Shown here piece by piece: positions 8,733 to 27,612 of a stretch of 28,286 bases of DNA. How positions within the stretch are numbered: the stretch's first letter is position 1; each line of letters opens with the position of its first letter. The notes under the pieces were generated by a model that saw nothing but the letters and a program-made list of their open reading frames with translations, did no database searches and was not told where the DNA came from. Source of the DNA: Priapulus caudatus (lineage: Eukaryota; Priapulida; Priapulimorpha; Priapulimorphida; Priapulidae); the NCBI RefSeq assembly GCF_000485595.1, contig NW_014577243.1:182022-210307 (forward strand). The letters run 5' to 3'. The translations under genes and the position numbers were made by a program.

Positions 8733-8847
8733 GTGTCTATGCAGGCGAAACACTGGCTATGGGAGTATGGCGCGTGTATTCTTGAAATTAGTCTTAATCA
8801 CGTTGTAAATCTCACCGCTAACCTAGTCGTGTATTTATCCTATGCAG

Positions 8848-8950
8848 GATAGAGTCGGACGAAGTGGTAGAGAACGAGTTAAACAGACGAGGAGTCCAGA
8901 TCAAGGAGGAGAAGAACTGCAGCATACAGTAGTCGGTGGCTTCTCTATAG
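8848..8950 (+). other. Candidate exon between consensus splice sites
   Basis: A 103-bp segment with an acceptor-like TTTATCCTATGCAG ending at 8847 and a strong GTGAGT donor at 8951. One frame (starting GAT) is open throughout and encodes a hydrophilic Arg/Gly/Glu-rich peptide. A second frame gives a charged peptide (ESDEVVENELNRRGVQIKEE) but stops before the donor. No family is recognised. The telomeric-repeat element at 8997 would lie in the following intron, only 46 bp from the donor. It may be part of a long non-coding RNA or UTR. Confidence 0.3.
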
Positions 8951-8996
8951 GTGAGTTCATCCACATTCATTCTATGCTAACATTGATTTCAGTAAC

Positions 8997-9303
8997 GCTG
9001 ATAGGGTCTATGTCCCCCAGGGTACTGCCGGAACGTAGCCTGGGTACGGTCCGTTATACCGGAACGTACCCTGGTACTATATATCTAATATGCCGGACCG
9101 TACCTCACCTACTCCACTAACGAGTCTAGTGATCGCCTACTCCCTAACCCTAACCCTAACTCTAACCCTATAACCCTAACCCTAACCTTAACCCTAATCC
9201 TAACCCTAACCATATCAAATAGTGACCCGGGTACGTTCCGGTATACCGGAGCGTACCCAGGGTACGTTCCGGCAGTACCCTGGGGGACATAGACCCTATG
9301 AGC
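8997..9303. mobile_element. Non-autonomous TIR element carrying telomeric repeats (element A)
   Basis: A 307-bp element with 75-bp terminal inverted repeats, 8997-9071 and 9229-9303, identical at 71 of 75 positions. The ends begin GCTGATAGGGTCTATGTCCC on the left and, read inward from the right, GCTCATAGGGTCTATGTCCC. It is flanked by an exact 9-bp target-site duplication, TTCAGTAAC, at 8988-8996 and 9304-9312. Each arm contains a nested near-palindrome built on GGTACGTTCCGG and its complement around CCGGTATACCGG, and a further GCCGGACCGTACC copy lies inside the left arm. The core holds a degenerate CCCTAA array. There is no coding capacity, so it is a MITE or foldback element that needs a transposase from elsewhere. 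A 9-bp duplication is typical of Mutator-like and also compatible with Merlin-like transposases; the assignment is inference. The high arm identity argues for fairly recent insertion. Confidence 0.93.
9142..9211 (-). repeat. Interstitial telomeric repeat (TTAGGG on minus strand)
   Basis: About 70 bp of CCCTAA units, mostly intact, with single-base variants (CTCTAA, CCTTAA, CCCTAT, TCCTAA). It lies wholly inside element A. The variants suggest age or copying from a subtelomeric, already degenerate source. Confidence 0.95.
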
Positions 9304-9422
9304 TTCAGTAACAGAGCGGTATCGCCTGTCATCTACAGTCCCTTGCACCGATCATCCTATTGGTGGTGAACGACAACTTCAGATTAGTTGCTGTTTCTAC
9401 CTGTGAGCAATAAAGTAGACTT

Positions 9423-9762
9423 GGCGAAAATCTGGTATTTTCGTCGAAAACCGACTCGAGATCACTGTTTACTGTGACTGTCTCTCGCTTTGAGATAACT
9501 TCGGGAAACCTCGCGTGTTTCCGTCAATGATTGACAAATCAAATGAATGACGTCTGTTATTGATTGCCATAGTGATGACCTCCACCTGTGCCCACCTCAC
9601 GCTGGATGTATAGTAAACTTTGTAGTACTGACGTAATGAGTCAACGCTACCATGGCGCTACACAGCGGCGACCGGAAGCAATACACTGGCCACAAAGCGA
9701 GAGACAGTCACAGCAAACAGTGATCTCGAGTCGGTTTTCGGCGAAAATACCAGATTTTCACC
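9423..9762. mobile_element. Non-autonomous element with 67-bp terminal inverted repeats
   Basis: Arms 9426-9492 and 9693-9759 are inverted copies identical at 65 of 67 positions; two more G bases outside each arm may belong to it (GGCGAAAATCTGG and GGTGAAAATCTGG). The interior of about 200 bp has no coding capacity (it reads as ordinary mixed sequence with small hairpins such as GGAAAC/GTTTCC). No convincing target-site duplication was found beside either end, so the true ends may lie further out or the flanks have been lost. The near identity of the arms suggests a young insertion or gene conversion between arms. The superfamily is unknown; the arms are unrelated to those of element A, 120 bp upstream. 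Confidence 0.85.
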
Positions 9763-9980
9763 GCTCATTATCTCAGCGTATGGGCATCGTAGGGACATGC
9801 GGTTTGTTTTATATTAACAAGGTAGGACATCTGATCAATAATACAGCAAAGAATCGTCAAAATAAAACGGACAACGTTTCTTAATTCGACTAATACTGCA
9901 ACATGGTTTCAGCATTTCACCGTTGTACGCTCTCCTTCTTTATACGCTCTTGATATAGTGTAGCCCCGTTATAACGCGAT

Positions 9981-10027
9981 TATATATATATATATACTAT
10001 ATAATATATAGTATATTATCACACATG

Positions 10028-10079
<52 letters not shown>

Positions 10080-10107
10080 GTCACGTGTGTATGTATATAT
10101 ATGATAA
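9981..10107. repeat. (TA)n tract with self-complementary segments
   Basis: Several TA runs, including one of about 20 units around 10029-10067, with a TATACTATAT/ATATAGTATA palindrome near 9992-10016 and TATG variants. It is prone to cruciform extrusion and length change. Confidence 0.93.
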
Positions 10108-10600
10108 GTCAATTGTGTGGCCGATGGTGTGGCGGTTGAACGATACAGGGTTTCGTTTGACTAAAATATGGTTGTATTAAAGTTATTGAGACAATGCCAC
10201 GGAGAACGATGTGTGTGTGTGTGTGTGTGTATGCCACAAGTGACATCGTAGATAACATTGAACGCCATCCGTATAGAGAGCCGCGCGTCGATTCGCTTGC
10301 GGTGATATCAGTAGGCTGCGTGCGTCGTTCTCGCTCTCTCGTCGGGCGACTCAGAAGTGCTCTAACAGTAAGGGTTGTATACCGGAGAAGAATGCATCGT
10401 CTCGGGTACGACTTAATCCGCGGCAACAGTCGGCGGGCCTTCCATACAAAATATTTGCGTGCCTTTTGCAAGCGAGTCGCGAAAGTCGTATTGTCTCAAG
10501 TTGCGAGAGCCGCGTCGTCGGCCAAACAGCGGGGAGTGCAGTCGCAATCATGCCGACTGGCTAAATGGCCACCGCTCAGTGATGTTGTTCCAACAGTGTG
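10108..10600. other. Unique stretch with short (GT)n; no gene recognised
   Basis: A 152-codon open frame (10194-10652, +) covers this stretch. It begins in a 12-unit GT repeat (10209-10231) that gives a Cys-Val run, then continues as an Arg/Ser-rich sequence without known domains. The antisense strand is also open for up to 120 codons, typical of GC-richer random sequence. I do not call it a gene, though an exon within 10250-10650 cannot be excluded. Confidence 0.4.
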
Positions 10601-10860
10601 TGCTCACCGGCTAGATCACAGCCTCACGGCCGCGAATGCCGTCGTAGTCTAATGTCTGCGCTCGGCCGCCATTGTTTGTCGCCCGGGTGCTCGCGGGGTG
10701 CCGCCATTGCAGTCATTGTGGCGCGCTGCCGCACGGCCACGTCGCACGCTTGATTGTTAGCGCGTAAGCCCGCAGTGTGAGCGTAGTACTGCTGCCCGCA
10801 TACCCGCCCGCCCCGCGCGCGCACTCGCCCCGCTACCGCAAGTAATTGCTCGTCGTAAGC
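10601..10860. promoter_or_regulatory. CpG-island-like promoter candidate with paired YY1-type motifs
   Basis: The most GC- and CpG-rich unique block of the window, with GCCCGGGTGCTCGCGGGGTG and CGCCCGCCCCGCGCGCGCAC stretches. Two copies of GCCGCCATTG lie at 10665-10674 and 10700-10709, 35 bp apart in the same orientation. The reverse complement contains ATGGCGGC, the YY1-type element common near animal transcription and translation starts. On the minus strand the frame after these ATGs is short (about 30 codons). There is no TATA box, as expected for such promoters. Function is inferred from composition and motif only. Confidence 0.4.
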
Positions 10861-11215
10861 GGCACTGTTGGCTGCGTTTTGGGTGTGCAGCTTATCGCGG
10901 CATATTCATGGCTTTTTGCGCGCGCGAGCCGTAATCCTGTCATTGGGTTGGAATTAAGAAGATGACTACCGTCCTTTATGGTGGGCGTCGAGTCATTTCC
11001 ACCCGCCCTCAGCGGCCAAGTAAATCAAATTGTCGTTTTTGTTTGGCCGATGTCGAGCAAGTCGCAGATCGACGAAGCCTCAGCCGTAATCTTGGTCTGT
11101 AATTCGGCGAAATTGGCCAACAAGATTTTGTAACCACAGATTGACAAACCGGCGCGACTTGACTGGAGTTTGTAAGCTGCTTGCTAGCGCGACAGTAACA
11201 CTAAAAAGTGTTGAA
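10861..11215. promoter_or_regulatory. Possible regulatory sequence beside the CpG-rich block
   Basis: Complex, non-repetitive sequence downstream of the CpG-rich block. It contains an octamer/POU-like ATATTCAT near 10903, CGTAAT at 10930-10935 and 11085-11090, TCATTGG and ATTGACAAA strings of the SOX type. These are short motifs and common by chance. The call rests on location and texture and is weak. Confidence 0.2.
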
Positions 11216-11955
11216 GCCTGACGCGTTTACGTGTCGATCGGTGGTCGTTGCTGGTTGGGCTGTAGTCTACTGTTATACGAGCTGTGTATATTGCTCTCGG
11301 ATATAGGATGAGTTTATTGCTTCTTGAGAAAAAAAACCTTTGTAACATTTTAGAAGGGTTTCTTAGTCATGGGCTCGTTAAAAATGTGTTTCGCTAATAC
11401 ACTCTGTTTGGCTTACAATAGCTGCTTATCTGTTTCACGACTAAGTTATAGTTTGCTTAGCTGAGAAGTAGTGATATTAGTATGAAGCTTGCAAGTGATG
11501 ACAGCAGAGGGTAAAGGGAATTGTCACAACGATGGAATTTTCCAAAATATCTTACGCATATTTTTATGATATCGAAAACGATGCTTTAGTTTGTGAACTT
11601 TTACCTTCATTAATTTCATTATTCCTTTATAAATGTTTTTAGACTTCTGTTATATTTCCGCGATGCTATATTTTATGTCGATAATATTTTTTCTATAGTA
11701 TATTTACTTGAAATAACTCACAGTAAATACACTGAAATAAATTACAGTAGATATCATCAAACACATAATTTATATGAAAATCATGCCTTGTTTAATAATG
11801 TTTAGATTTAGTTGTGTCGAGATTTGTTGACTAAAATTTTTACACCATGTTGTCAAAGTAACCGAACAAACTGATGCAGTACATTGTTGAGGAAATGTTA
11901 GTTGGTAGCTAATAGTAACTCTTCATTTTATTCGTTCCTTTTAAATTAGTGAAAT
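11216..11955. other. AT-rich stretch, no gene recognised
   Basis: Mostly A/T-rich between 11300 and 11950, without open frames of note, repeats or convincing splice sites. I see nothing functional. Confidence 0.5.
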
Positions 11956-11956
11956 G

Positions 11957-12018
11957 CGCACGAATGCACACGCAGACGCGCACGCGTGTGTTCGTACGTG
12001 CGTTCGTGTGCGTATATG

Positions 12019-12103
<85 letters not shown>

Positions 12104-12230
12104 GTGCGCATGCGCGTGTATATGTGTGTATGTGCGCGCGCGTGTGTGTGTTTCTGTGTACGTGTATGTGTATGTGCGTGTGCGTGCGTGCGTGTGTGTG
12201 TGCGTGTGCGTAGACTTGTGCGCGCGTGTG
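11957..12230. repeat. Large (GT)n/(TGCG)n microsatellite
   Basis: Begins as degenerate CACG/CGTG sequence, has a pure GT core (about 12028-12067), then TGCG tetranucleotides (12068-12104) and mixed GTGTAT/GCGC units. Element B is inserted at its right edge, and the 9-bp duplication flanking B is itself microsatellite-like. Frames of Cys-Val-Arg or Thr-His-Ala repeats are artefacts. Confidence 0.96.
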
Positions 12231-12236
12231 CGGGTG

Positions 12237-12475
12237 GCGAAATTTTTTTTCCCACGAGAGTTCCGGACCCACCACAGATAGTGTTTTGTAATATATGGTG
12301 TCTATATAAGACGAACCTGGTTGGATTATAGTTAGTGTTAGGGTTAGGGTTCGGGTTAGGTTTAGGGTTAGGGTTAGGGTGTGTAAATTTTACATTGTTG
12401 CTTCGAGGAAGTCGAGTGAAATGGAGTGCGCTGATTGGCTGGGGTCCGGAACTCTCGTGGGAAAAAAAATTTCGC
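12237..12475. mobile_element. Non-autonomous TIR element carrying telomeric repeats (element B)
   Basis: A 239-bp element with perfect 34-bp terminal inverted repeats, 12237-12270 and 12442-12475. The outer ends read GCGAAATTTTTTTTCCCACG in both inward directions. An exact 9-bp target-site duplication, GTGCGGGTG, lies at 12228-12236 and 12476-12484. The core contains a TTAGGG array and otherwise no coding capacity. Its arms are unrelated to those of element A except for the first two bases (GC), yet size class, duplication length and the telomeric core are the same. The 34/34 arm identity, including an 8-T run, points to a recent insertion into the edge of the microsatellite. It must be moved by a transposase encoded elsewhere; Mutator-like or Merlin-like is inferred from duplication length only. 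Confidence 0.93.
12332..12382 (+). repeat. Interstitial telomeric repeat (TTAGGG)
   Basis: About eight TTAGGG units with a few variants (TTAGTG, TTCGGG, TTTAGGG), entirely inside element B. The G-rich strand is on plus, opposite to the array in element A. Confidence 0.95.
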
Positions 12476-12484
12476 GTGCGGGTG

Positions 12485-13138
12485 AGCGTGCATGTTCAGA
12501 GAAGGGCGCGCATGTGCCATCGAGTCTGCGTACAAAACTGGGTACCCGCGTGTGCCTATGTGTGTGCACGTATTTAGCGTTTCGTGGGGGTGGGAGTGTG
12601 TTGTGGTGATCAAGCGTCCATCTGTGATAAGGGCTATTGTTGCGATCTCTGTGCCATATTTCATGCAGTTCGAGCGATACCGATGTTGAAAGATTTTGGG
12701 ATGGCTTTTCTCACTGTTTGGTCGGCTAAGCAGGCCTAATCTGAGAGCTTACCATATTTCAATAATGGTGTCTTGGGAGATTTCGTGCACGTTTGCCTGT
12801 TGAATGGGAGGTAGGCGACAGGTACTTAAAGCGTTATCGGATCAGTTAGTGCTTAGCCGCCGCTGACTGTAGTGCCCGGCTGTCGTAGCGGTTCTCTAAT
12901 TAGAGAGTAAGGGCCGCCCACGAGATAAAGAGTTACTCCCCTGTGAGCAGTTTCGGTTGCCCTCTCTATTTTCGGTTGCCTTGCGCTGCAGGTTTTCCGC
13001 TAGTGTGCCTGAATGCTGAAGCCATGGTGTGAGGTACGCGTTCACTTGTCTACGTAACGACTTACGGGGCAAAGTAAGCACGTGAATAATATGCTAATAA
13101 TAATTATTTTTTCGCAATTTATACTCGCATGTACCACA
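12485..13138. other. Unique stretch, no gene recognised
   Basis: Moderately GC-balanced sequence with short open frames only. A TCTCTAATTAGAGA palindrome near 12893-12906 contains a homeodomain-type TAATTA core. Nothing else is supported. Confidence 0.45.
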
Positions 13139-13219: not shown

Positions 13220-14434
13220 TGTTTTAGCTCGTGCTGTGCTGCATGCAACGTGTTTTAGCTTCGCTGCTGCTGACCGTTGTTTTTCGCTGCTGTGCTGCCG
13301 GTGTATTATAGCTCGCTGCTGTCTGCCGTGTTTTAGCTCGCTGTGCTTGCCGTGTTTATAAGCTCGTGCTGCTGGCCGGTTTTAGTCGCTGTGCTTGCTG
13401 CCGTGGTTTAGCACGCGCTGCTGCTGCGTGTTTTAGCCTCGCTGTCTGGTGCCTGCCGTGGGTTAGTTCGCTGCTGCTGATGCGATGTTTTTGTAGCTCG
13501 CTGCTGCTCCGCGCCGTCGTTATTAGCTCGCTCGCTGATGCCGATGTTTTGAGTTCGCTGCTGCTGCGCCGTGTTTAATAGCTCGCTGCTGATGCCGTGT
13601 TTTTAGTTCGCTGCTGCTGCCGCCGGCTAAGTTTTAGCTCCGCTGCTGCGCGGTTCGCGTTTTAGTTCGCTGCGCTGCTGCGTGTTTCTTTTGCTGCTGC
13701 TGCCCCGTGTTTAGTCGCTGCTTGCCGCTGCCGTGTTTTAGCTCGCTGCTGGCTGATGCCGTGTTTAGTCGCTGCCGCTGCTGCCCGGGTTTTGTTTGCC
13801 TGCTGCTGCGCCGCTGTTTAGCTCGTGCTGCTGCTGCCGTGTTTAGTTCGCTGCTGCTGCTGCTTGCCAGTGTTTTTGTTCGCTTGCTGCTTGATTGCCG
13901 TTTGTTTTAGCTCGCTGCTGCTCCGCCGTGTTTTAGCTCGCTGCTTGCCGCCGTCGTGTTTTGTCGCTGCCGCCTGCTGCGTGTGTTTAGTTGCTGCTGC
14001 TGCTGCCGTGTTTTAGCTCGCTGCTGCCGCCGTCGTGTTTTAGTTCGCTGCCGCTGCTGCCGTGTTTTAGTTCGCTGCTGCTGCTGCCGTGTTTTAGTTT
14101 TGCTGCCGTGCTGCCGTGTTTTAGTTTTTGCTGTGTCGCTGCCTGTGTTTTAGTTCGCTGCTGCCGCCGTGTTTTAGCTCGCTGCTGCTGCCGCCGTGTT
14201 TTAGCTCGCTGCTGCCGCCGTGTTTTAGCTCGCTGCTGCTGCCGCCGTGTTTTAGCTCGCTGCTGCTGCTGCTGTGTTTTAGCTCGCTGCTGCTGCCGCC
14301 GTGTTTTAGCTCGCTGCTGCTGCCGTGTTTTAGCTCGCTGCTGCTGCTGCCGTGTTTTAGCTCGCTGCTGCTGCTGCCGTGTTTTAGCTCGCGCTGCTGC
14401 CGTGTTTTAGTTCGCTGCTGCTTCCGCGGTGTTT
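13220..14434. repeat. CTG-rich minisatellite, 21-27-bp units, degraded on the left
   Basis: Tandem units of the form GTGTTTTAGCTCGCTGCTGC followed by one to three more CTG/CCG triplets, roughly 50 copies. From about 13990 to 14390 units are clean, mostly 24 or 27 bp, differing by whole triplets. Left of about 13990 the same unit is recognisable, but nearly every copy has single-base insertions and deletions (for example GCCTCGCTGTCTGGTGCC). Long frames on either strand (Ser-Leu-Cys or Glu-Leu-Lys-His-Gly-Ser repeats) follow from the triplet-length units and are not evidence of a gene. CTG slippage inside each unit explains the length variation. Confidence 0.95.
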
Positions 14435-16841: not shown

Positions 16842-17110
16842 CCGCCTCGGCAATGGCACATGCTTCCATAGATGTCATCGCCTACCATGTCCGCATAGAC
16901 ACCTACTTCAATACTTGCCATTTTCTACCATGTCAACAAGGACACCTGTTTTAGTACTTACCATTATCTACCATGTCAACAAGGACACCTGTTTTAGTAC
17001 TTACCATTACTACGTGTACTATAATAGCAAGGGTACCTGCTTCAATACTGACCGTAACCTACAATGCCCGCGAGGACATGCATGCGCACCCTCCATGCTG
17101 ATCGTTCCCT
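16842..17110. repeat. 43-bp tandem repeat, about five to six units
   Basis: Units start at 16885, 16928 and 16971, exactly 43 bp apart, around CCATGTCAACAAGGACACC followed by TGTTTTAGTACTTACCATTA. Units 16928 and 16971 are nearly identical; outer units (from about 16842, and from 17014 to about 17110) are more diverged and less regular. The 155-codon frame (16732-17199, +) crosses the array, but 43 is not divisible by three, so the peptide does not repeat as a coding repeat would. Confidence 0.85.
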
Positions 17111-18731: not shown

Positions 18732-19000
18732 AGGCTGCAATAGAAGACCCGCGTGTGTGCTTGTCTTCTCTGTAGCGGCTCCTGCAAGAGAAGACCCGCG
18801 TGTGTGCTTGTCTTCTCTATAGCGGCTCCTGCAATAGAAGACCCGCGTGCGTGGTTGTCTTCTCTGTAGCACCTCCTGCAAGAGAAGACCCTCATGCGTG
18901 CTTGTCTTCTCTGTAGCACCTCCTGCAAGAGAAGACCCTCATGCGTGCTTGTCTTCTCTGTAGCAGCTCCTGCAATAGAAGACCCGCGTGCGTGATTGTG
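18732..19000. repeat. 47-bp tandem repeat in which every unit encodes a hairpin
   Basis: AGAAGACCC recurs at 18742, 18789, 18836, 18883, 18930 and 18977, exactly 47 bp apart, giving about five and a half units. Each unit carries a 7 to 9-bp inverted repeat (AGAGAAGAC ... GTCTTCTCT) around a 14-nt loop, joined by a GTAGC(A/G)(G/C)CTCCTGCAA linker. Two unit subtypes exist: loops with CCGCGTGYGTG and loops with CCTCATGCGTG. The two CCTCATGCGTG copies (18883 and 18930) are adjacent and nearly identical, showing local duplication. The length is not divisible by three, so the 104-codon minus frame over it is incidental. Confidence 0.92.
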
Positions 19001-19190
19001 TTCACGCGAGTTGCTGTCGCTGCGCAGCATGATGCAGCGTCATATACCGTATGATGCGGGCAGGCACGTAGCAACTGGATGCGTCCACACTTTCCGTCTC
19101 TATACTGTTCGTCATTTCTGCCCCGCGTATTGTTTCACATCTTCGACATAAATTTTGTTGCATCGTCATTGGAACCTGCTGATGCGGCGC

Positions 19191-21540: not shown

Positions 21541-21888
21541 ATTTCACTCACTGTTTGTTGGATGTTTTTAAATACCAACAACTTGCGCATGACGACATAC
21601 AGCATAAAATGGGTGTTTCTGTAGGTCGCCGTGTCTGATACCTTTTGTTGGGCATAAATTAAGTAGATGTGGTCAGAGCAGGTGAATTAGGCTGTCACTT
21701 TAAATGTGTATTCACTGCGTGGCTGCGAGCAAAATTGCCTGTTTACTTTACAGTGCGGATCCAGTTCACAGACGTCGTGTAGCGAGGTTACGTAATCTTC
21801 TAGCTTGAAGACGAATTTCAAACCCTCTATTTGAGCGCGACGATTGGTTTAGCGTGTCATAAAGTACGGATTTTCAGTAACGAGGTTA
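21541..21888. other. Unique stretch, nothing recognised
   Basis: No open frame, repeat or signal worth naming; AT-rich intergenic or intronic sequence leading to the inverted-repeat element. Confidence 0.45.
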
Positions 21889-22611
21889 TGGAAATAGAAA
21901 GATTTTAGTGCACAGGAGATGAGGATTGGGCGTGATTATTATGTAAATGCATCACGAGATACGTGATGCATTTGAGGCACATGAGTCTACAGCATCACTT
22001 GAGGTTATATATATATATAATATATTTAATCAACGTGCTATTCTGTTTTGTTTGCGCTGCATCATCTGGTTGCGATGATGAAGGCGATTAGCTGTTATTT
22101 AGCAAAAAGTTATGCAACTATTCCGAAGCAATTGCGATATAGCCTCGTACCGAACAAGCTAGTAAATCTTGATGCCACACGCGGACGAAATTAGGCTTGA
22201 TTCTTGTTACTTCTTCTGCTGTACAGTGTGCTTTTGTTACATTATGTTACGTTACCTTACGTATGTTGTTTGGTTAAGTTATGTTGTACTATTATTTGTA
22301 GACGAGCATTTGTGATGAGTTAATTTTAAGTCTAATTGCCGTTGTGCTTTATATGAACTTGGTCTCACTCTACATAACAGGCTGTTTTGCGGAGGGACAG
22401 ACTAACTCGGTATACGTGCTATCAAGAGTAGATAATAACAATTATCTACTCTTGGTGCTATGTGATATATGCTACAGTGTGTCGTATACTGCTACATATG
22501 TCTGTCTATGTGGCAGAATAGTTGGTTGCCAGTCTACGTATCTCGTGATGCATTTACATAATAATCACGCCCAATCATCATCTCATGTGCTCTCAAATCT
22601 TTATATTTCCA
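21889..22611. mobile_element. 723-bp element with 76-bp inverted repeats
   Basis: Arms 21889-21964 and 22536-22611 are equal-length inverted copies with about six or seven mismatches, nearly all in the outer half; the inner 40 bp or so (from GATTGGGCGTGATTATTATG inward) are identical. The left arm runs into a perfect palindrome AAATGCATCACG/CGTGATGCATTT with a 5-nt loop, so the arm partly repeats itself inverted. The interior contains an AT run (about 22005-22030) and the 14-bp hairpin described next. A 92-codon frame inside (22344-22622) shows no transposase motif and runs into the right arm. No target duplication was found. Non-autonomous DNA transposon is the best guess. Confidence 0.8.
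22423..22454. repeat. Perfect 14-bp hairpin with 4-nt loop
   Basis: CAAGAGTAGATAAT pairs perfectly with ATTATCTACTCTTG around AACA. It lies inside the 723-bp inverted-repeat element and could be a nested small insertion or a structural part of it. Confidence 0.85.
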
Positions 22612-23139
22612 CAACAAGATAAGTGATAAGTTTAAAGATTTGTGAACAATTAGAATTTTCAATTGACACATTTTGAACAAATTTGAATTGAATTTTCTCG
22701 CAGTTCTGATGCCGAATATAGTTGCTCGCTGTGATGCGTTCGTTGGTGGTCGTGCGGCTGTATATAGCACCTGTTTCAGCAGTTTGGTATTTTCCGGTAG
22801 ACCTCCATAGACGAATCATTGTACTGTAGAGTAGCAAACGCCCTCAGATCTTCGTGGTTTTGTAGTCACTTGTTAGCATTTCATGCGGGATTGACGAGAC
22901 GCGTGTATGGTGATGTGATACGCAGTCATTTCTGCCACAGATGCCCGTGGCTTGACTGCTGTCTGAAGAGCGTGCTTGCTTGTTACGCGGGCCCTCCCTC
23001 TGTACTGGTGTTGTTTAATTTATTGTATACAGACGTTCGGCGTCTTTTTGATAATCAACCGCGAGTGGCGCGCGTGTGTGCGTACGATCACAGTTGGCCG
23101 GTTCATTGAGAACTAATTCTTGCTTTATTTTGCTCCCAG
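22612..23139. other. Unique stretch, no gene recognised
   Basis: A 96-codon frame at 22819-23109 (+) has no known motif. The last 25 bases form a strong polypyrimidine acceptor for the next feature. Confidence 0.4.
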
Positions 23140-25268: not shown

Positions 25269-25371
25269 TGTGCTCGTCTATAAACACCTATGTATAAATA
25301 AATTAAAGCTGCTCGGTCAATGTGCTCGTCTATAAACACCTATGTATGAATATATTAAAGCTGCTCGGTCA
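25269..25371. repeat. 52-bp tandem duplication
   Basis: 25269-25320 and 25321-25371 share TGTGCTCGTCTATAAACACC and a second block ATTAAAGCTGCTCGGTCA, with a few differences between them (TATAAATAAA versus TATGAATATA). Both contain a TATAAA string. A recent simple duplication. Confidence 0.92.
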
Positions 25372-27506: not shown

Positions 27507-27515
27507 GTATTGGTT

Positions 27516-27603
27516 TAGCTCTAGAACTATAGCCCTTCGCTCTGCCTCAGGCAGAGCATAGGCACAGCCTGTGGCAGCGCGAAGAGCTATCGTTCTAGAG
27601 CTA
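27516..27603. mobile_element. 88-bp palindromic MITE with 9-bp target duplication (element C)
   Basis: The whole 88-bp element is one imperfect palindrome: reading inward from both ends, 37 of 44 positions match, starting with an identical TAGCTCTAGAAC. An exact 9-bp direct repeat, GTATTGGTT, flanks it at 27507-27515 and 27604-27612. It has no coding capacity and would fold into a single long hairpin. The duplication length is the same as for elements A and B, so the same class of transposase may have moved it, but its ends differ from theirs and it has no telomeric core. Confidence 0.85.
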
Positions 27604-27612
27604 GTATTGGTT

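What the first reader, a model, noticed from the sequence alone, without database searches (positions are those of the whole stretch)
8988..12484. Two unrelated-ended MITEs both package telomeric repeats and both make 9-bp target duplications
Element A (8997-9303) and element B (12237-12475) are about 3 kb apart. Each has inverted ends, an exact 9-bp flanking duplication and a core of TTAGGG/CCCTAA repeats, yet their arms (75 bp and 34 bp) show no similarity beyond the first two bases. The same architecture twice with different ends suggests either convergent capture of telomeric DNA by one transposase class, or an old family whose arms are replaced while the telomeric core is kept. It would mean interstitial telomeric sequence in this genome spreads by transposition, not only by telomerase repair or fusion. 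The telomeric core might have a role, for example as a telomere-protein binding site affecting target choice, silencing or excision.
Basis: partly seen in the sequence, partly recalled or inferred. Interest (0 to 1): 0.9.

Follow-up and report, generated by a model that had tools for sequence, protein, structure and literature searches.

The report
Two mobile elements carrying telomere repeats
Two neighbouring, sequence-unrelated miniature transposons in a eukaryotic genome each carry a short block of chromosome-end (TTAGGG) repeats between their inverted ends, which suggests that such repeats can be moved around a genome by cut-and-paste transposition, although other copies could not be looked for here.

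Summary
Element A (8997-9303) has 79-nt inverted arms (74 of 79 paired); element B (12237-12475) has 34-nt arms (34 of 34). Each is flanked flush by an exact 9-bp duplication and encloses a degenerate TTAGGG/CCCTAA tract of 70 or 50 nt. No inverted repeat with such flanks arose in 20 simulated windows. The tracts are the only telomeric arrays in the window; 0 of 17 telomeric tracts from viral contigs lay in an inverted repeat. A third element (27516-27603) has the 9-bp signature but no telomeric core, so the core is not a fixed companion of that signature.

Best reading: two different non-autonomous TIR families, probably Mutator-class (inferred from duplication length alone), each carrying a telomeric core as cargo. 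B's tract is degenerate while its arms and duplication are perfect, which weakly favours transport over addition on site (P about 0.05-0.07). Later insertion of telomeric repeats into resident elements is not excluded. No role of the core is shown. Other copies, an autonomous partner, the host and its telomere repeat could not be determined, because the genome search did not complete (19 attempts). A new variant of a known kind (tandem-repeat-carrying MITE).

The parts
8988..8996 (.). Element A left target-site duplication TTCAGTAAC
   Evidence: exact match to 9304-9312, flush with the arm
8997..9075 (+). Element A left inverted arm, 79 nt, begins GCTGATAGGG
   Evidence: 74 of 79 positions pair with 9225-9303
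9142..9211 (+). Element A telomeric core, degenerate (CCCTAA)n
   Evidence: TRF 11.3 copies, 84% matches; 67 matches, 3 mismatches and a 4-nt gap against a perfect hexamer array
9225..9303 (-). Element A right inverted arm
9304..9312 (.). Element A right target-site duplication TTCAGTAAC
12228..12236 (.). Element B left target-site duplication GTGCGGGTG
12237..12270 (+). Element B left inverted arm, 34 nt, begins GCGAAATTTT
   Evidence: 34 of 34 positions pair with 12442-12475
12331..12380 (+). Element B telomeric core, degenerate (TTAGGG)n
   Evidence: TRF 8.3 copies, 88% matches; 47 of 50 match a perfect hexamer array
12442..12475 (-). Element B right inverted arm
12476..12484 (.). Element B right target-site duplication GTGCGGGTG
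27507..27612 (.). Comparison element D: 88-bp inverted-repeat element 27516-27603 with 37-nt arms and an exact 9-bp duplication GTATTGGTT, no telomeric core

Best explanation
A and B are single insertions of two different non-autonomous TIR DNA transposon families (MITE-sized: 307 and 239 bp). Each was moved by a transposase supplied in trans that makes a 9-bp staggered cut, most likely of the Mutator (MULE) class. In the ancestor of each family the interior of a larger element was lost and telomeric DNA was put in its place. This could happen by template-switching gap repair after excision or fork stalling, or by telomerase acting on the broken interior. From then on the telomeric block travelled as passive cargo. 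SHOWN: inverted arms, flush exact 9-bp duplications, enclosed telomere-type tracts, no detectable likeness between the arms. INFERRED: mobility and transposase class, that the core was present before insertion at these two sites, and how the core was acquired. The confidence given is for 'two unrelated mobile families, each with the telomeric core as travelling cargo'; the capture route and the MULE assignment are less certain.
For: TIRs plus flush exact 9-bp duplications, absent from 20 simulated windows. Of 35 TRF arrays (merged by hand), 3 lie inside the five inverted-repeat elements, and two of those three are the only telomeric ones; random placement puts both telomeric tracts inside 9-bp-duplication elements with probability 0.00027, or inside any of the five with 0.0024 (post hoc). 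0 of 17 telomeric tracts from viral contigs lie within an inverted repeat by the same script, against 2 of 2 here (several of the 17 have less than 1.5 kb of held flank on one side). B's arms (0 of 34 pairs differ) and duplication (0 of 9 differ) are intact while its tract departs from the hexamer at 3 of 50 positions. If the tract had been perfect on insertion and changes fell evenly, all three falling in the tract has P 0.073 (arms only) or 0.048 (arms plus duplications), so the tract was probably degenerate before B inserted. Precedent: Pack-TIR capture of host DNA in animals by gap filling and template switching, with the 9-10-bp-duplication element FB4 judged there to be more likely a MULE (PMC8277862, passages); Tm1, a Mutator/Foldback family with mostly 9-bp duplications and MITE-like members (PMC3169594, passages); tandem repeats carried inside MITEs (PMC9659126 and PMC12628747, passages).
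Against: No second copy of either arm was found in anything that answered (translated-frame searches), so repetitiveness, and with it mobility of a family, is unproven. No transposase: 0 of 30 translated ORFs reached a Pfam cut-off. Element D has the 9-bp signature and no telomeric core. The age argument from B is weak, and for A the arms (5 of 79 pairs differ) and the tract (3 of 70 plus a 4-nt gap) are about equally diverged. It is assumed, not shown, that TTAGGG is this host's telomere repeat.
Confidence: 0.58

Rival explanations
1. Telomeric repeats were inserted later into two resident MITEs: the long hairpin-forming palindromes broke, and the breaks were healed with telomeric repeats (telomerase or captured telomeric fragments), as described for short interstitial telomeric sequences in mammals. 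The tracts then did not transpose.
For: [quoted passage not shown] A and B fold as strong hairpins (z -15.3 and -9.8), so they are plausible break sites (inference). A's tract and arms are about equally diverged.
Against: It needs two independent events 3 kb apart in two unrelated elements. B's tract looks older than B's insertion (P 0.05-0.07).
Confidence: 0.22
2. The cores are ordinary microsatellite growth inside the elements: a chance GGGTTA-like seed expanded by slippage, as with other tandem repeats in MITEs, and has nothing to do with telomeres or telomerase.
For: MITEs with hitchhiking or internally grown tandem repeats are known (reviews PMC9659126, PMC12628747, passages). The window is rich in tandem arrays (51 TRF rows). 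The host's telomere repeat is not known.
Against: Two unrelated families would have to hit the same hexamer independently, and no other TTAGGG array was found in the window.
Confidence: 0.12
3. The telomeric core is a kept, working part (for example a telomere-protein binding site or a G-quadruplex former that affects targeting, silencing or replication of the element), and arms are exchanged around it.
For: The same core in two elements with unrelated arms. In the predicted fold of A the tract is left unpaired in the loop.
Against: Only two elements; both cores are degenerate (67 of 70 plus a gap, and 47 of 50, matching); element D has none; on the + strand A reads CCCTAA and B reads TTAGGG. 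The arms show no likeness.
Confidence: 0.06

Closest known systems
Mutator/Foldback-class non-autonomous elements (Tm1 of Meloidogyne; FB4 Pack-MULE of Drosophila; Mutator-like MITEs of pineapple)
   Same: Inverted ends, 8-10-bp (often 9-bp) duplications, non-autonomous or MITE-like members; FB4 carries host DNA (PMC3169594, PMC8277862, PMC8449440; passages)
   Different: No sequence comparison with them was made; a telomeric core is not mentioned in the passages read ('telomer' occurs 0 times in PMC3169594); Tm1 has tandem repeats in its arms, A and B have them in the centre
MITEs or MITE-like elements that carry tandem repeats: (GTCY)n of Lepidoptera, miDNA4 of Xenopus, Pearl-type elements of bivalves
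   Same: Short elements with inverted repeats at or near the ends and a tandem array in the interior (PMC9659126, PMC12628747, PMC7492417; passages)
   Different: Those arrays are not telomeric in the passages read; Pearl is now classed as a non-autonomous Helentron (PMC7492417), a kind not expected to have TIRs with a 9-bp duplication (recalled)
Short interstitial telomeric sequences made at double-strand breaks, incl. TERC-linked tracts
   Same: Short TTAGGG tracts at internal sites; some have flanking duplications (6 of 130 rodent and 4 of 25 primate loci in a table of PMC2246262)
   Different: Here the duplications border inverted arms and lie about 90-145 nt away from the tract, not at its edges; in vertebrates the authors judged transposons not to have spread TERC-linked tracts (PMC8537989)

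Membership tests
MITE (non-autonomous TIR element) | Terminal inverted repeats | tested here: met
   A 74 of 79, B 34 of 34 positions paired
MITE (non-autonomous TIR element) | Exact target-site duplication flush with the ends | tested here: met
   9-bp on both; none in 20 simulated windows
MITE (non-autonomous TIR element) | Short, no transposase gene | tested here: met
   307 and 239 bp; of the ORFs overlapping them one for each (8827-9117 +, 12377-12748 -) was scanned against Pfam, no match
MITE (non-autonomous TIR element) | Many copies in the genome | not testable with these tools
   The genome search did not answer in 19 attempts; exact arm strings absent from viral contigs and, for A, from prokaryotic contigs
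Mutator-like element (MULE) | Duplication of about 9 bp | tested here: met
   9 bp on A, B and D; not exclusive: Merlin-type elements also reach 9 (recalled)
Mutator-like element (MULE) | Ends or transposase homologous to a MULE | not testable with these tools
   no autonomous partner could be searched for in the genome; no transposase domain in 30 of 67 window ORFs of 90 aa or more
Pack-TIR / Pack-MULE | Host DNA between the inverted ends | tested here: inconclusive
   a telomere-type tract is there, but its source cannot be traced and the host telomere repeat is unknown
Double-strand-break interstitial telomeric sequence | Tract inserted directly at the break, with any flank change at the tract's own edges | tested here: inconclusive
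   the 9-bp duplications border the arms, not the tract, but a later insertion of the tract alone inside an element cannot be excluded without copies
Foldback element | Long arms built of tandem repeats | tested here: not met
   A's arms each hold CCGGAACGT twice (element positions 32 and 63; mirrored at 237 and 268) but TRF lists no tandem array in the arms of A or B; in B no non-telomeric 9-mer occurred three or more times, both strands counted

The most novel reading that the evidence does not exclude
In this genome several unrelated cut-and-paste transposon families have independently replaced their interiors with telomeric DNA, because telomerase or telomere fragments heal breaks inside excising elements. 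Through these elements interstitial telomeric sequence spreads by transposition, and the elements could also act as dispersed seeds for telomerase-independent telomere copying.
Probability: 0.27. Interest if true: 0.75.

Novelty: new variant of a known kind. Interest (0 to 1): 0.5.

Why it matters
Interstitial telomeric sequences are commonly read as remnants of chromosome rearrangement or of telomerase action at breaks. If a sizeable share of them are the cores of small transposons, that reading needs a check for inverted ends and 9-bp duplications at each tract. [quoted passage not shown] Mobile telomeric tracts would also bear on telomerase-independent telomere maintenance: in C. elegans telomerase mutants, neighbouring internal tracts and the unique DNA between them can be copied onto telomeres (PMC9071541, passages). 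A and B happen to be oriented with their G-rich strands pointing outward from the segment between them; that orientation has a chance of about one in four and is no evidence of function.

Tried and rejected
Host genome: the genome search was tried 19 times and never answered, so copy number, family consensus, autonomous partner and empty haplotypes are untested. Prokaryotic genome contigs: one A-arm string gave 0; B was not tried there. Translated frames across parts of A and across B against the protein collection, in the hope of catching spurious ORFs on related contigs: 0 hits at E up to 0.1 (1, 81 and 323 candidates). Literal arm strings in papers: 0 papers. Rfam at gathering scores and tRNA: nothing. 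Pfam: of the 67 stop-to-stop frames of 90 aa or more, 30 were scanned, chosen by eye to avoid low complexity; one weak match far below its cut-off (14.9 against 25 bits). The host could therefore not be named; the microsatellite load and lack of recognisable genes suggest only 'eukaryote', probably animal (inference).

Rejected: chance inverted repeats. No evidence found for homology of arms A and B. Considered and not adopted: Pearl/Helentron membership (recalled features, with the description in PMC7492417). Literature precedents for telomeric cores in TIR elements were sought; none of the listed titles or of the passages read describes one. These cover open-licence PMC papers only, and some lists were capped (15 of 83 papers listed, 15 of 23). 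A 2013 paper on tandem-repeat MITEs in Donax was not held, and the GTCY-MITE paper was seen only as a reference.

Papers: passages only were read of PMC6410037, PMC6947457, PMC9659126, PMC12628747, PMC7492417, PMC2246262, PMC8277862, PMC8537989, PMC9498494, PMC8449440, PMC9071541 and PMC3169594. All others were seen as search listings. Statements on Merlin, on Helentron ends and on the usual features of MULEs are recalled.
Full report
Observation. The window holds two compact inverted-repeat units with flush, exact 9-bp duplications and a telomere-type tract inside. A spans 8997-9303 with 79-nt arms (74 of 79 paired) and TTCAGTAAC on both sides. B spans 12237-12475 with 34-nt arms (34 of 34 paired) and GTGCGGGTG on both sides. 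The tracts are 9142-9211 (CCCTAA, 67 matches with 3 mismatches and a 4-nt gap against a perfect array) and 12331-12380 (TTAGGG, 47 of 50). They are the only such tracts found in the window.

More than chance. In 20 windows simulated by a first-order Markov chain from the real one, the best inverted repeat scored 16 and none of score 14 or more had a 9-bp flanking duplication. The real window, after low-complexity arms were dropped, has 12 repeats of score 14 or more, three of them with flush 9-bp duplications: 64 (A), 34 (B) and 25 (D, 27516-27603). If tracts of 70 and 50 nt were dropped at random, both would fall inside the three 9-bp elements in 0.027% of trials and inside any of five inverted-repeat elements in 0.24%. 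This is post hoc, since the elements were noticed because of their tracts. As an outside yardstick, the 17 stretches of viral contigs with four exact TTAGGG units were fetched, and 0 of 17 lay inside an inverted repeat of score 14 or more within 1.5 kb, against 2 of 2 here with the same script. Viral contigs are not the host genome and some have short held flanks, so this is a rough control only.

Surroundings. Between A and B lies another inverted-repeat element (9423-9762, 70-nt arms, no duplication found), and at 21885-22615 a 731-bp one with 80-nt arms and no duplication found. Element D (27516-27603) has the 9-bp duplication GTATTGGTT and no telomeric repeats. No pair of arm families aligned so well that 10 or fewer of 200 shuffles reached the score. 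No gene was recognised: 30 of 67 stop-to-stop frames of 90 aa or more were scanned against Pfam without a match above cut-off, and Rfam and tRNA scans are empty.

How it most likely works. The anatomy is that of non-autonomous DNA transposons moved in trans by a transposase with a 9-bp stagger. Duplication length points to the Mutator class, as argued in print for FB4 (PMC8277862) and reported for the Mutator/Foldback family Tm1 (PMC3169594), but no sequence test of that was possible. A's arms hold the motif CCGGAACGT twice each, a candidate transposase site (inference). Both elements fold into strong hairpins; in A the telomeric tract is left unpaired in the loop, in B the tract is partly paired. 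B's arms and duplication are perfect while its tract is not. If the tract had been perfect on insertion, all three changes falling in it would have a chance of 0.073 with arms alone, or 0.048 with the duplications added. That favours, weakly, a tract that was already degenerate when B jumped, i.e. cargo. For A the divergence of arms and tract is similar and decides nothing. How a transposon could pick up telomeric DNA is inferred: gap filling and template switching are the published routes for host DNA in animal TIR elements (PMC8277862), and telomeric repeats are known to be inserted at breaks (PMC2246262). An excision break or a hairpin-induced break inside an element would join the two.

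Rivals. Later healing of breaks inside two resident elements is the main one; [quoted passage not shown] Slippage growth from a chance seed, and a kept functional core, are less likely. Only the other copies of A and B can decide.

What could not be done. The genome search tool did not answer in 19 attempts, the whole genome was not available as a file, and no exact arm string matched in viral contigs or, for A, in prokaryotic contigs. Translated-frame searches of the protein collection gave nothing. Hence repetitiveness, the autonomous partner, empty sites in other haplotypes and the host itself are unknown, and that TTAGGG is the host's telomere repeat is an assumption.

Known or new. Tandem-repeat-carrying MITEs and 9-bp-duplication Mutator/Foldback elements are known kinds. 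Telomeric cores in such elements did not appear in the listings or passages, which cover open-licence papers only and in part capped lists; [quoted passage not shown] I therefore file it as a new variant of a known kind, of moderate interest now and high interest if genome-wide counts confirm it.

Noticed in passing
27507-27612: An 88-bp inverted-repeat element (37-nt arms) with an exact 9-bp duplication GTATTGGTT and no telomeric core; a third element with a 9-bp duplication in 28 kb.
   Followed up: partly
9423-9762: A further inverted-repeat element between A and B: 70-nt arms beginning GG(C/T)GAAAATCTGG, 340 bp, no target duplication found.
   Followed up: partly
21885-22615: A 731-bp inverted-repeat element with 80-nt arms and no duplication found. 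The 9-mer duplicated around A (TTCAGTAAC) also occurs at 21873-21881, just before its left end; probably coincidence.
   Followed up: partly
12020-12208: Element B sits just downstream of a long GT/GTGC-rich microsatellite and its duplication GTGCGGGTG looks like part of it; Mutator-like MITEs that target TA microsatellites are described in pineapple (PMC8449440, passages).
   Followed up: no
13249-14434: A 1.2-kb variable minisatellite with a 27/54-bp unit rich in GCTGCTGC.
   Followed up: no
18735-19003 and 16882-17013: Minisatellites with 47-bp (5.7 copies, 91% matches) and 43-bp (3.1 copies, 87% matches) units.
   Followed up: no
25269-25371: A nearly perfect tandem duplication of 52 bp (96% matches, two copies).
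   Followed up: no
9142-9211 and 12331-12380: The two telomeric tracts have their G-rich strands pointing outward from the 3.1-kb segment between them, like the two ends of a small chromosome; about one chance in four.
   Followed up: no
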